A stretch of DNA of 64,000 bases from contig NZ_CP129884.1 in NCBI RefSeq assembly GCF_030490285.1, positions 1,798,001-1,862,000 of the forward strand, in the 5' to 3' direction. Shown here piece after piece: positions 34,780 through 46,499 of the stretch; position 1 is the stretch's first letter; every line of letters starts with the position of its first letter. Below the pieces are notes generated by a model, which did no database searches, had not been told where the DNA came from, and saw nothing but the letters and a program-made list of their open reading frames with translations. The position numbers were made by a program, and so were the translations under genes. This DNA is from Methylomonas montana (GTDB lineage Bacteria; Pseudomonadota; Gammaproteobacteria; Methylococcales; Methylomonadaceae).

Positions 34780-34836
34780 GGACATGAAACAGACTAACCC
34801 CTTGGGGAGAGTCGTTCATCTCCCCGAGGCGGGTGA
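34780..34836 (-). promoter_or_regulatory. Island 5'-UTR RNA element, copy 1
   Basis: On the transcribed strand, ACCC arms at 34832-34836 and GGGGT at 34797-34801 enclose a GGGGAGA/TCTCCCC hairpin with loop TGAACGAC. The hairpin 5' arm and loop (GGAGATGAAC) can also pair with a downstream TTTCATGTCC. The gene start at 34749 follows. Confidence 0.6.
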
Positions 34837-34890
34837 TACTGGTTAGACCAGTGGTTATGTAAAAGACTTACTTTAGATTTTGTGCGCTGG

Positions 34891-35249
34891 CTATGAAGCT
34901 AAAGCCAAATGGCTATCATGCAGGCCATCCCAATCCAATTGCCGGACACCGTTTTGATCGCTATCCAACAAGCTATCGGGATCAATGCCATGATTTGCCA
35001 GTACAGTGCTCATGGCCTGGGTTAGCAGGGTATGACCTCGCTCACGTTCGGATTCACCGCCGTATTTGATCGCCCAAAATGGATCAAAGTGATAATGCCG
35101 GCCATCTCGTTTACAGTGCCTACTGACTTCGGTTCGAAAGGCTTTATCGCGTTTTTCTGCTACACGAATAAAATGCCGGTTCTTGAAGTTTCCCAAGCCT
35201 TGATACTCAAGGCTTCAGGCGTTGCATAATACTGATGATTATCTATCAT
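34891..35249 (-). pseudogene. Small island gene, probable single-base frameshift
   Basis: The likely start is ATG 35249, with GGAG 6 bases upstream (MIDNHQYYATPEALSIK). That frame stops after 28 codons, but the next frame continues with LGNFKNRHFIRVAEKRDKAF and ends after HDSHLALAS at 34891. Adding one G near 35197 would join them as ALSIKGLGNFKNRH, giving about 119 residues. The second part alone has no plausible start or ribosome site (TTG at 35196). The join is therefore probably real, with the shift either a mutation or a base-call error. Function unknown. It is the second-to-last gene of the minus-strand block. Confidence 0.55.
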
Positions 35250-35271
35250 GGTGATCTCCGATAAGACCTCT

Positions 35272-35317
35272 GATGACTGATTCAACCCAGGCGGGATAGA
35301 ATCATCCCGCAGGGGTA
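35272..35317 (-). promoter_or_regulatory. Island 5'-UTR RNA element, copy 2
   Basis: ACCCC (35312-35316) and GGGT enclose GCGGGAT/ATCCCGC with loop GATTCT. The loop TGATTC can pair with GAATCA just downstream, forming an H-type pseudoknot. Upstream (35325-35345), a CTCGG/CCGAG hairpin with T-run resembles a terminator of the previous gene. Confidence 0.65.
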
Positions 35318-35365
35318 TAGTGAAAAAGCTCGGCTTAACCGAGTGTCAAAAATGAAAACAGCGCG

Positions 35366-35863
35366 TCAGATCAATGCAAACCGTTTGCCTTGAATGAAGT
35401 CCTGGTACTGTCGGGCTTCGATTTTTACTTTGAACCGGGCATGCACGCTGCCGTCGATCCAGATTTCCCAGGGCAAGCGTTTAAGCTCGCCTCTGACCAG
35501 TTCCACCTCGCCAACCCGAAAATCATCGTGTTGGTAAAGTACCTGGCGTGGACTATCAATGCGAACGATGCAGTGATCCAGCAATGCCGGACCATCGATG
35601 TCACCCGGTTCGATCAACAGCGGCACTTTGATGGTGCCGGTCGAACGGCCGATCCAGCCGATGACATCGTGTTCATCGTGCCAGGACTGGCCGCTTTGGG
35701 TATCGCCGTAATACAGCCGGATTTTGCGTCGGCTATGGCGAAGCTGTTCCAACAACTCGACCACCGGTTCCGGTGTGTCGGCGTGATAACAGGTGCCAGA
35801 CGGCAAACGCTGGTACTGGATGCAATGACCCGTGCCGAAGGTGTGTTCAAAGATTTGTGTCAT
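35366..35863 (-). CDS. Hypothetical island protein
   Basis: Encodes 165 residues from ATG 35863 (MTQIFEHTFGTGHCIQYQRLP), with GAGGA 9 bases upstream. It reads as a mixed alpha/beta cytoplasmic protein with Cys pairs (GHCIQY, SGTCYHA) and blocks like KIRLYYGDTQSGQSWHDEHDVIGWIGRSTGTIKVPLLIEPGD. The repeated pattern LYYGDT...GWIGRSTG suggests a small beta domain (DUF-type). It is in the CobT/ssb operon and preceded by RNA element copy 3. No function assigned. Confidence 0.6.
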   Translation of the reverse strand: MTQIFEHTFGTGHCIQYQRLPSGTCYHADTPEPVVELLEQLRHSRRKIRLYYGDTQSGQSWHDEHDVIGWIGRSTGTIKVPLLIEPGDIDGPALLDHCIVRIDSPRQVLYQHDDFRVGEVELVRGELKRLPWEIWIDGSVHARFKVKIEARQYQDFIQGKRFALI

Positions 35864-35883
35864 GATGTTGTCCTCAATTAAAA

Positions 35884-35932
35884 CGGAAACATCACGATTC
35901 CCCAGCGGGAATATGGCATTCCCGTGTGGGTG
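35884..35932 (-). promoter_or_regulatory. Island 5'-UTR RNA element, copy 3
   Basis: CACCC (35927-35932) and GGGG enclose CGGGAAT/ATTCCCG with loop GCCAT. The 5' arm (ACGGGAA) can instead pair with downstream TTTCCGT. The start codon at 35863 follows 20 bases after. Confidence 0.65.
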
Positions 35933-36015
35933 GATAAAAATGAGCGCCGAATCGAATGATTTGGCTAACTCGGGCTTGTACAAATTGCGCCAATAAACAT
36001 ATCAACGCGCAGTTT

Positions 36016-44674: not shown

Positions 44675-44692
44675 GACCTCTCCTGATAAATG

Positions 44693-44742
44693 AAGAGCGC
44701 CATGTCCTACCCCGTGGGCGAATAATGACGCCCTCGTGGGTG
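44693..44742 (-). promoter_or_regulatory. Island 5'-UTR RNA element, copy 10
   Basis: ACCC and GGGT enclose GGGCG/CGCCC with loop TCATTATT. The 5' arm AGGGCG can pair instead with downstream CGCTCT using one G-U pair. Confidence 0.65.
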
Positions 44743-44769
44743 GTTAAAGAATTTAGGATTGCAGCGTTT

Positions 44770-45810
44770 CTACGCCGCGTGTCCCAGGGTTTGACGGGCC
44801 TGATTCATGGCCATGTCTTTCGCGGACATGGGTGGCATGCCAGTGTTTTCGGTTTGTTCCAGGGCTTGTGTTGCCTTGGGTTCAACTTGCGATACCTTGT
44901 CCAACTCGGCCAACGCAAAGGTCAGGTCGATGCCTTTGAACTTCTGGTGGGCATAGTCGTAGGCTGCTTTCCAGGCACCTGCCGCCTTGGTACGACGTAC
45001 CAATTCCGCTACGGCCTTTTGCACCTTGGGATGGATTTGCGACAAGTTGATCACCTGAGACGTGTGCTCGGATGATTCGGGAAACCGATCGTCTGCATCG
45101 CCTTCCCACACAGTCGCTTCGCCATCAATTACAGTAGCGTCGGTGAGGTCGTCGAGCGTTTTGCCATCCATTTCCTCGGCCGCATAACCGCATTCCTCCG
45201 GAAAGGCTGCCCTGAGTGACGCTGCTTTACCGCATTTGGCCAATTGCCCCTTGGGGCGTTTGATCCACATCGCGGTCGGCACTTGCGAGTTTTTACCGCC
45301 GGCCGTGCTGTAAGCTTCCAGCCAATACACTTCCTCGGTAAAGGCGCAGCGTTTCCCTCCGACGATCCGGTATACAGTAACCGCCACCCATTCGGGAAAG
45401 GTCACGGTGACACTGGATTCCTGCCATTGCTCGTTGTCGTCCTTATAGCGACCGGTAAAGGTCTTGGTGACATCAGGACCCCAGACGGGCCTATCCATGC
45501 CGGCCCAAACACCGGTTCGGGATGCGGTGGTCTGAATTTCCATGATGGACGGCCAGACGGTTTCGACATTGCGGCCTAAAGCGGCACTCCACATCGGCAC
45601 GATATGCACCGGCTTTTTGAAGATATCGAGCTTGCGGGCCTTGCAATAATCCAGCGCCATCAGGATGGCTTCCGGTGTTTTGGCTGTCGGGAAGGTCACT
45701 TCCGTCAGTACTTTCCAGGACTGTTCCGATAGGCCATAGCTTTGTTGCGCAGTGACCGGCATCGGCAGGTCGCGGGTTTTGGGTGAGTTGTTGCGGTTGT
45801 TTTGGCTCAT
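44770..45810 (-). CDS. bet: Bet/RecT-family single-strand annealing protein
   Basis: Encodes 346 residues. The N-terminal half matches phage recombination protein Bet: SWKVLTEVTFPTAKTPEAILMALDYCKARKLDIFKKPVHIVPMW and EIQTTASRTGVWAGMDRPVWGPDV, followed by VTFPEWVAVTVYR. The C-terminal part is more variable. It anneals complementary single strands made by the partner exonuclease (43341-44342). In SXT/R391 the pair bet-exo promotes recombination between elements. The gene is preceded by RNA element copy 11 and by ssb. Confidence 0.9.
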   Translation of the reverse strand: MSQNNRNNSPKTRDLPMPVTAQQSYGLSEQSWKVLTEVTFPTAKTPEAILMALDYCKARKLDIFKKPVHIVPMWSAALGRNVETVWPSIMEIQTTASRTGVWAGMDRPVWGPDVTKTFTGRYKDDNEQWQESSVTVTFPEWVAVTVYRIVGGKRCAFTEEVYWLEAYSTAGGKNSQVPTAMWIKRPKGQLAKCGKAASLRAAFPEECGYAAEEMDGKTLDDLTDATVIDGEATVWEGDADDRFPESSEHTSQVINLSQIHPKVQKAVAELVRRTKAAGAWKAAYDYAHQKFKGIDLTFALAELDKVSQVEPKATQALEQTENTGMPPMSAKDMAMNQARQTLGHAA

Positions 45811-45832
45811 GGTGGGTCTCCTTCAATAAAAA

Positions 45833-45878
45833 AAGGGAACGCCATTGCCCGCCGGGGAATGGAATTCCCCTTGGGGTT
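45833..45878 (-). promoter_or_regulatory. Island 5'-UTR RNA element, copy 11
   Basis: ACCCC encloses with GGCGGGC around GGGGAAT/ATTCCCC, loop TCC. The 5' arm AGGGGAA can instead pair with downstream TTCCCTT (one G-U). Confidence 0.65.
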
Positions 45879-45953
45879 GAAATACCGAAGCCTGAAAAGG
45901 ATCGGCGGTGTAAACGTTATATCCACGAACGCCAATAATCGGCGCGCCGCGGA

Positions 45954-46385
45954 TTAATGCATAGGCATATCGCTGTAGTCGTCCTCCCAATCGGCATCTT
46001 CGGGCGCCGCTGGGGATGATGACGAGCCGCTTGCGGATGCCGATGCATTGGGACGATCCAGCATCTGCAATTCAAAGGCGGCGATTTCGGTACGGTAGCG
46101 CTTATCGCCCGCTTGACCCCATTGCTGGGTACGCAAACGGCCTTCGATGTAGATCTGACTGCCTTTGTGCAAATACTGTTCGGCGGTATCAGCGAGTTTT
46201 TTGAAAAACACCACCCGATGCCACTCGGTCCGCTCCTGTTTACCGTTTTTGGGATCGTTCCAGATTTCGCTGGTTGCCAAACGGATGGCGACGACTTTGC
46301 CGCCGTTATTGGGCATAAAGCGAACATCCGGATCGGCGCCGAGCCGGCCCAGCAAGATGACTTTGTTCACGCCGCGATTGGCCAT
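45954..46385 (-). CDS. ssb: Single-stranded DNA-binding protein
   Basis: Encodes 143 residues from ATG 46385 (MANRGVNKVILLGRLGADPD), SD AGGAGG upstream. The OB fold is clear: RFMPNNGGKVVAIRLATSEIWNDPKNGKQERTEWHRVVFFKKLADTAEQYLHKGSQIYIEGRLRTQQW. The C-terminus is acidic (EDADWEDDYSDMPMH) but ends MPMH, without the DDDIPF tip that recruits host partners. It supports the Bet-Exo recombination module. Typical bacterial SSBs are about 170 residues; this one is shorter. RNA element copy 12, longer than the rest, lies upstream. Confidence 0.92.
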   Translation of the reverse strand: MANRGVNKVILLGRLGADPDVRFMPNNGGKVVAIRLATSEIWNDPKNGKQERTEWHRVVFFKKLADTAEQYLHKGSQIYIEGRLRTQQWGQAGDKRYRTEIAAFELQMLDRPNASASASGSSSSPAAPEDADWEDDYSDMPMH

Positions 46386-46399
46386 GATGACATTCCTCC

Positions 46400-46499
46400 T
46401 GTCGGCCGCGCCCGACTCAACGATAAAATACCCAGCGGCGCGGCGATGGGCATGCCGGCGCCTCGAATCCCTGGGGGAATCGATACGCCCGGCAGGGTT
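46400..46499 (-). promoter_or_regulatory. Island 5'-UTR RNA element, copy 12 (extended)
   Basis: ACCC (near 46495) and GGGT (near 46430) enclose a longer stem region with GCCGGGCG and GCGCCGGC-type arms. It is about twice the length of the other copies and may contain an inserted hairpin. It sits directly before the ssb ribosome site. Confidence 0.45.

What the first reader, a model, noticed from the sequence alone, without database searches (positions are those of the whole stretch)
34780..46499. Twelve copies of a structured 5'-UTR element, one before nearly every gene of the island operon
Seen in sequence: each start at 34749, 35249, 35863, 36678, 37734, 39619, 40900, 42698, 43022, 44674, 45810 and 46385 is preceded, 15-60 bases upstream, by the same architecture. 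It has outer ACCC/GGGT arms, an inner G-rich/C-rich hairpin with a 3-8 base loop, and a downstream segment complementary to the inner 5' arm or loop. Inner stems differ between copies (GGGGAGA/TCTCCCC, GCGGGAT/ATCCCGC, CGGGAAT/ATTCCCG, CAGGGGC/GCCCCTG), so pairing is kept while sequence is not: compensatory change. The distal segment also follows its own arm (GGGGCAAA/TTTGCCCC, GGGGCACA/TGTGCCTC, GCAGGAACC/GGTTGTTCC, TGATTC/GAATCA). This fits a pseudoknot or a switch between two folds. The two block genes without a copy (41754 and 44342) are coupled to the gene before them. Inference: an element-wide post-transcriptional control, perhaps by a protein or ribosome-protein-like regulator encoded by the island. 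The STAXI motif reported near ssb, topoisomerase and antirestriction genes is a simple repeated pseudoknot and might be related.
Basis: partly seen in the sequence, partly recalled or inferred. Interest (0 to 1): 0.88.

Follow-up and report, generated by a model that had tools for sequence, protein, structure and literature searches.

The report
A folding translation switch per gene
Nearly every gene of a DNA-recombination operon on this mobile genetic island, and of the matching operon on IncC plasmids, is preceded by its own copy of an RNA leader that is predicted to fold in two exclusive ways, one hiding and one freeing the start of translation, so each gene would carry its own on/off switch.

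Summary
The twelve leaders are real. A covariance model built without window sequence (R2) finds all twelve at the stated starts: ten at E<=0.0066, the ssb and 34749 copies only at 0.49 and 0.58, with nothing but overlapping antisense matches besides. C:D covaries. Predicted folds flip: A:C wins before D is made, A:B plus C:D afterwards. The family spans Methylomonas islands, IncC plasmids and other proteobacterial mobile elements; Rfam has no match. A review reports a translational attenuator upstream of bet in SXT, also present in IncA/C. Best reading: cis-acting bistable translational attenuators, one per uncoupled cistron, each with its own pairing key. The trigger is unknown; STAXI is not supported. 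A second structured RNA heads three gene blocks.

The parts
45808..45879 (-). leader of the RecT/Bet gene (start 45810)
   Evidence: R2 E=8.7e-10
44672..44743 (-). leader of the 111-aa gene (start 44674)
   Evidence: R2 E=2.7e-4
43020..43089 (-). leader of the 68-aa gene (start 43022)
   Evidence: R2 E=3.4e-5
42696..42773 (-). leader of the CobS/CbbQ-like ATPase gene (start 42698)
   Evidence: R2 E=2.2e-6
40898..40964 (-). leader of the DUF3150 gene (start 40900)
   Evidence: R2 E=5.9e-8
39617..39684 (-). leader of the VWA gene (start 39619), used as the worked example
   Evidence: R2 E=1.7e-9
39678..39681 (-). example, o5 (CCCA): pairs with o3 in the OFF fold
   Evidence: sequence; automatic fold
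39664..39675 (-). example, A (GGGGCAAATTCA): pairs with B (OFF) or C (ON)
   Evidence: duplex energies and permutation
39658..39663 (-). example, B (TGTCCC): pairs with A (OFF) or o3 (ON)
39652..39655 (-). example, o3 (TGGG): pairs with o5 (OFF) or B (ON)
39637..39649 (-). example, C (CGTGGTTTGCCCC): complement of both A and D
   Evidence: A:C -15.0, C:D -13.6 kcal/mol
39617..39629 (-). example, D (GGAGCACACCATG): Shine-Dalgarno and start codon
   Evidence: sequence
37732..37815 (-). divergent leader of the 178-aa gene (start 37734); its A:C pairing uses GCTTCG/CGAAGTG
   Evidence: R2 E=0.0066; R1 only E=0.79
36676..36740 (-). leader of the 220-aa gene (start 36678)
   Evidence: R2 E=0.0011
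35861..35932 (-). leader of the 165-aa gene (start 35863)
   Evidence: R2 E=7.9e-9
35247..35317 (-). leader before start 35249 (reading frame broken downstream)
   Evidence: R2 E=0.0022
34747..34836 (-). divergent leader of the HATPase gene (start 34749): long A:C pairing followed by TTTTTT, weak C:D
   Evidence: R2 E=0.58; A:C -25.4, C:D -6.3 kcal/mol
46383..46500 (-). divergent leader of ssb (start 46385)
   Evidence: R2 E=0.49; sequence comparison
44339..44342 (-). exonuclease start overlapping the upstream stop; no leader
   Evidence: gap -4 nt
41752..41757 (-). start 41754 next to the upstream stop; no leader
   Evidence: gap 2 nt

Best explanation
Each copy is an RNA leader of six short segments (o5-A-B-o3-C-D) whose complementary sequences allow two mutually exclusive folds, and it likely acts in cis as a bistable translational attenuator of the gene that follows. 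D is the Shine-Dalgarno sequence plus start codon. In the predicted OFF fold o5 pairs with o3, A with B and C with D, so the ribosome-binding site would be hidden. In the predicted ON fold A pairs with C and B with o3, so D would be free. Shown by the calls: the own-partner specificity of A:B, A:C and C:D, covariation of C:D, a leader before uncoupled cistrons, and confinement to the two islands in this genome. Predicted: A:C is favoured until D has been made, and A:B plus C:D afterwards, so translation would be open mainly on fresh transcripts and close as the RNA refolds. Inferred: control of translation rather than of termination, without ligand or leader peptide. A and C carry a different key in each gene, so the switches would work separately along one mRNA. 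What shifts the balance in the cell is unknown.
For: Own A:C and C:D pairings beat cross-leader ones in the window, in Methylomonas-trained alignments and in 15 of 15 (A:C) and 14 of 15 (C:D) loci outside Methylomonas, with A:C never in the model. Two-sided changes 196 against 84.7+-7.3 in shuffles; 8 of 9 C:D pairs have them (alignment fitted to the model). 103 of 105 held-out sense hits end in a start codon (the model includes ATG). Energies: A:C better before D in 193 of 218, A:B+C:D better with D in 198 of 218; both in 90 of 129 real against 11 of 129 with C shuffled. A resembles its own D (z=7.9). Coupled starts lack a leader. [quoted passage not shown]
Against: No expression data. The original SXT paper was not held and the SXT leader itself was not seen. 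A:D, a control, is borderline (p=0.049) and z=-2.7; B:C deviates the other way (z=+3.8); B:D p=0.017. C:D is weak in the 34749, 37734 and 45810 copies. The OFF fold is not the better one in 20 of 218, and nascent A:C not in 25 of 218. Energies are single-strand predictions with forbidden pairs, not kinetics. No trigger was found.
Confidence: 0.68

Rival explanations
1. Transcription attenuation: the A:C hairpin followed by T's is an intrinsic terminator before each gene, A:B is the antiterminator, and a factor or antitermination RNA lets RNA polymerase pass.
For: A:C is the better fold of the nascent leader in 193 of 218. A T-run of 5 or more follows C in 55 of 127, for example at 34749 and 45810. 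A second structured RNA heads three blocks.
Against: 51 of 127 distinct leaders have no T-run above 3. C:D pairing with the start region is not needed for a terminator. The consensus scan found 22 terminator-like sites against 15.9+-4.0 in shuffles.
Confidence: 0.14
2. Protein feedback: one island or host protein binds the common features (outer CCC/GGG stem, G/C hairpin) of all leaders and controls them together.
For: The outer stem and inner G/C pairs are nearly invariant, and many leaders share one island.
Against: Loop sequences differ between genes. A ProQ-family gene was found in the chromosome outside the island and in neither plasmid searched; other RNA-binding families were not searched. 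Any single protein would have to serve IncC, Vibrio and Comamonas elements alike.
Confidence: 0.1
3. Static shading: A:B and C:D are two fixed hairpins that only keep translation low; the A:C complementarity is a by-product of B and C resembling each other, and no switching occurs.
For: A:B plus C:D is the better full-length fold in 198 of 218. B and C must resemble each other if both fit A.
Against: Own-partner specificity of A:C is as strong as that of C:D and extends over the loop of A, which B does not pair with.
Confidence: 0.08
4. A STAXI-like or single-stranded DNA structure used during transfer rather than an mRNA switch.
For: The gene neighbourhood (ssb, recombinase, antirestriction) resembles that described for STAXI (PMC2864571, passages).
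Against: No Rfam match; leaders end at start codons and pair with the Shine-Dalgarno/start region; G-U pairs are frequent in the covarying helix.
Confidence: 0

Closest known systems
Translational attenuator upstream of bet in SXT, reported as present also in IncA/C plasmids (Garriss et al. 2013 as cited in PMC4542580; original not seen)
   Same: Same gene module; IncC bet has a member of this leader family (L071 9987-10066); control at translation is the stated effect.
   Different: Here a family of leaders, one per uncoupled cistron, with an alternative fold. The review passage read speaks of one attenuator upstream of bet. The SXT leader itself was not compared.
erm/cat-type translational attenuators (recalled)
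   Same: Alternative pairings hide or free a ribosome-binding site.
   Different: Those use a translated leader peptide; 3 of 11 window leaders have no open frame through A and none is shared.
STAXI motif, RF01728 (PMC2864571, passages seen)
   Same: Near ssb, antirestriction and other DNA-handling genes of mobile elements.
   Different: Tandem pseudoknots repeated two or three times; no Rfam match here.
Ribosomal-protein leaders with autoregulation (recalled)
   Same: Post-transcriptional control of an operon through structured leaders.
   Different: Recalled as usually one site bound by one product; here a site per cistron with differing keys and no known binder.

Membership tests
SXT/IncC bet translational attenuator | lies upstream of bet in the SXT/IncC-type module | tested here: met
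   IncC bet leader L071 9987-10066 E=3e-7, window bet leader E=8.7e-10; SXT itself not found
SXT/IncC bet translational attenuator | structure hides the ribosome-binding site | tested here: met
   as a prediction only: C:D own-partner specificity and covariation
SXT/IncC bet translational attenuator | lowers translation of bet | not testable with these tools
   reported for SXT in a review; no expression data here
STAXI (RF01728) | matches the Rfam model | tested here: not met
   no STAXI match at E<=10 in window 34700-46600, none at gathering in 4 loci, none at E<=5 in 15 loci
STAXI (RF01728) | pseudoknot repeated two or three times in tandem | tested here: not met
   single leaders spread over 34747-46500
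intrinsic terminator | hairpin followed by a T-run in every copy | tested here: not met
   T-run of 5 or more in 55, of 3 or fewer in 51, of 127 distinct leaders; individual copies may still terminate
leader-peptide attenuator (erm/cat type) | short leader frame through the first arm | tested here: not met
   none in 3 of 11 window leaders, no common frame in the rest (60 nt upstream examined)
any Rfam 15 family | match at the gathering score | tested here: not met
   only two tRNAs in the window; none in L071, L072, L073, L063

The most novel reading that the evidence does not exclude
A widespread, ligand-free riboregulator class of mobile elements: each uncoupled cistron carries its own orthogonal bistable leader that is open while the RNA is being made and then folds shut, a co-transcriptional timer that ties translation of recombination and antirestriction genes to bursts of fresh transcription.
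Probability: 0.33. Interest if true: 0.9.

Novelty: new variant of a known kind. Interest (0 to 1): 0.8.

Why it matters
If true, a large group of mobile elements, IncC plasmids among them, meters translation of its DNA-recombination and antirestriction genes cistron by cistron with a common RNA device that has no Rfam entry. It would turn one reported attenuator (bet of SXT) into a family, give a natural set of orthogonal translation switches, and make testable why genes that a review calls highly transcribed are weakly expressed.

Tried and rejected
STAXI: no match. Leader peptide or coupling to the upstream ribosome: no common frame, stop-to-leader distance 19 to 456 nt in eleven window leaders. 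Pure terminator: T-run not general. ProQ partner encoded beside the leaders: none on pYDC637 or pUP202, one chromosomal gene outside both islands. The first MAFFT alignment A1 was partly out of register; on it two of five covariation measures were reached often by shuffles (111/500 and 135/500). The later alignment A5 is fitted to the model and leans towards it, where one measure, pairs with two-sided change, was still reached by 43 of 500 shuffles; a fixed-column count for A:C was not attempted because loop length shifts the register, so the permutation tests carry A:C. Automatic segmentation took an A:C hairpin instead of A:B in several leaders (for example window 42698 and 34749); they stayed in the count. 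Of the 50 leaders, eleven divergent or poorly trimmed ones were dropped before training and 14 from IncC and Vibrio were held out of R1. SXT itself was not found: the E. coli collection gave 88 records at E<=1e-100, 87 places on plasmids and one on a chromosome (60 rows listed), and a class sample gave 4 of 369 genomes with a distant Bet. Paper searches listed nothing recognisable as a per-cistron leader family; I read passages or sections of PMC4542580, PMC2864571, PMC3915882 and PMC3118119, and a term search in PMC4344509 found none of its six terms. Most subscription papers are not held, so absence from print is not shown.
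Full report
WHAT IS THERE. The minus-strand block 46385 to 33097 holds ssb, RecT/Bet, a YqaJ exonuclease, a CobS/CbbQ-like ATPase, DUF3150 and VWA genes among others. A matching gene set lies on the IncC plasmid pYDC637 and on plasmids of Vibrio penaeicida and Methylomonas sp. UP202. The genome has a second copy at 4.21 Mb. [quoted passage not shown]

THE OBSERVATION. Read in transcript direction, each leader runs o5 (CCC), A (GGGG...), B (CCCC), o3 (GGG), C, linker, D (Shine-Dalgarno and start codon). Model R1 came from 25 Methylomonas leaders (window 9, L063 8, L073 8) with the outer, A:B and C:D pairs. Model R2 came from 141 hits in 35 loci without the window. R2 finds all twelve window copies, ten at E<=0.0066 and two (ssb, 34749) at about 0.5, and besides them six overlapping antisense hits at E<=10.

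MORE THAN CHANCE. If the pairings matter, each A should fit its own C better than another leader's C. With hand segments this holds in the window for A:B, A:C and C:D and not for A:D, B:C or B:D. With automatic hairpin finding on 50 leaders of five loci: A:C z=-9.9, C:D z=-8.5, A:D p=0.36, B:C p=0.84, B:D p=0.017. With model columns on 150 rows, 144 of them in loci with at least four: A:C z=-17.6, own partner best in 100 of 144; C:D z=-16.0, best in 88 of 144; A:D z=-2.7, B:D z=-1.3, B:C z=+3.8. On loci outside Methylomonas: A:C p<=0.009 in 15 of 15, C:D p<0.05 in 14 of 15 (0.10 in L095), A:D p=0.049, B:C p=0.25, B:D p=0.43 over all loci. Sixteen such loci were searched and one had fewer than four sense copies. 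L097 and L098 give the same scores as the IncC plasmid, and L101 to L103 nearly those of L072, so the loci are not independent. On alignment A5 two-sided changes number 196 against 84.7+-7.3 in shuffles and at most 67 when partners are slid.

SPECIFICITY AND SPREAD. In the whole genome 18 of 18 R1 hits at E<=1 lie inside the two islands. Of 23 genomes of the genus searched with both queries, 9 of 9 with a DUF3150 match have R1 hits at E<=0.01 and so do 2 of 14 without; among 14 genomes of the order 3 have one hit each. The IncC stretch, not used in training, has eight sense hits at E<=0.052 and two antisense ones in that range or near it (0.0083, 0.06). R1 also finds leaders in loci of Methylomicrobium, Methylobacter, Shewanella, Providencia, Edwardsiella, Marinomonas, Vibrio, Alcanivorax, Paraglaciecola and the betaproteobacterium Comamonas: 122 hits at E<=0.5, 105 sense and 17 antisense. 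In a class sample 13 of 185 genomes, own included, have a hit at E<=0.001; in a phylum sample 13 of 398, own included, at E<=0.0001 with strict filters that lose weak matches. Pfam names some of the genes after these leaders: CbbQ-like ATPase, DUF3577, an ArdC-type antirestriction protein and a SNF2/ResIII-type helicase; six of ten proteins had no Pfam match. Others look like RecT, ArdC and YqaJ by eye only. In E. coli complete genomes the IncC bet leader with its gene is found at 99% or more over at least 80% of the query in 83 of 88 records (84 at 99% or more, one of them partial), with four at 80-90%. Against one of these 85%-identical relatives, three of six leaders (cobS, DUF3150, VWA) differ at no more than three positions; bet, exo and the sixth differ more. 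Rfam has no match.

MECHANISM. Folding with forbidden pairs compared the two states in 218 distinct leaders. Up to the base before D the A:C fold is better in 193 (mean 5.0 kcal/mol). With D present A:B plus C:D is better in 198 (mean 5.6 kcal/mol). In the printed A:C folds B pairs with o3. On A5 both conditions hold in 90 of 129 leaders, and in 11 of 129 after C was shuffled. This is what a leader that is open while nascent and closes once its own ribosome-binding site exists would look like; that cells use it so is inference. A resembles its own D more than other D's (z=7.9), as expected if both compete for C. In the window the twelve uncoupled starts have a leader (two of them below threshold) and the two coupled ones have none. 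In IncC, where 62 nt separate bet and exo, exo has its own leader (E=6e-4), while two further hypothetical genes there show other hairpins.

WHAT REMAINS OPEN. There is no expression data, the original SXT paper was not held, a terminator role of copies with strong T-runs is not excluded, and the trigger is unknown. A second structured RNA of four hairpins shows two-sided change in 17 of 26 pairs over 21 sequences. It lies at the head of three blocks of the window (E 1.1e-20 to 9.1e-18; two of the three copies were in its training set) and in none of ten non-methanotroph loci searched, so the leaders do not depend on it. It may mark transcription starts or an antitermination signal.

Noticed in passing
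window 46514-46600, 43096-43179, 37847-37934 (minus strand): A second structured RNA: about 87 nt, four successive hairpins with conserved loops (one TGCGTCAA), just upstream of the leaders of ssb, the 68-aa gene and the 178-aa gene. 17 of 26 pairs show two-sided change; three copies per island, six in the genome; no Rfam match in 34700-46600 at E<=10.
   Followed up: partly
window 39704-40900, 40984-41754, 43341-44342: Three unlike proteins end in an acidic stretch plus WF (..DQDYWF..DTDDCWF..GVDFWF), which recalls the SSB C-terminal tip; perhaps shared docking on a partner.
   Followed up: no
window 34891-35249: The gene after the 35249 leader does not read through from that start (stops); the open frame begins at 35196 in another frame.
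   Followed up: no
window 36843-37220: A plus-strand 125-aa ORF lies inside the minus-strand block, between the 178-aa and 220-aa genes, so the block is probably not one transcript.
   Followed up: no
window 29564-30028 and 30667-31353: Two FlhC-family genes with a DUF4325 gene between them; possibly activators like SetCD/AcaCD.
   Followed up: no
window 47585-51991: A DUF4007 gene followed by a 1163-aa ORF with an ATP-binding-like motif; looks like a defence system, by recall only.
   Followed up: no
window 46383-46500: The ssb leader may be two hairpins with complementary loops (CCGCGC / GCGCGG); in L063 both stems differ and the loops are kept. IncC ssb instead has an ordinary leader (E=0.0084).
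   Followed up: partly
L071 7427-7494 and 12261-12328: The IncC cobS and DUF3150 leaders and about 60 nt before them are nearly identical, which suggests that leaders spread by duplication.
   Followed up: no
G013 and G015: Two genus members without a DUF3150 match still have three and two leader hits, so leaders also occur without that gene.
   Followed up: no
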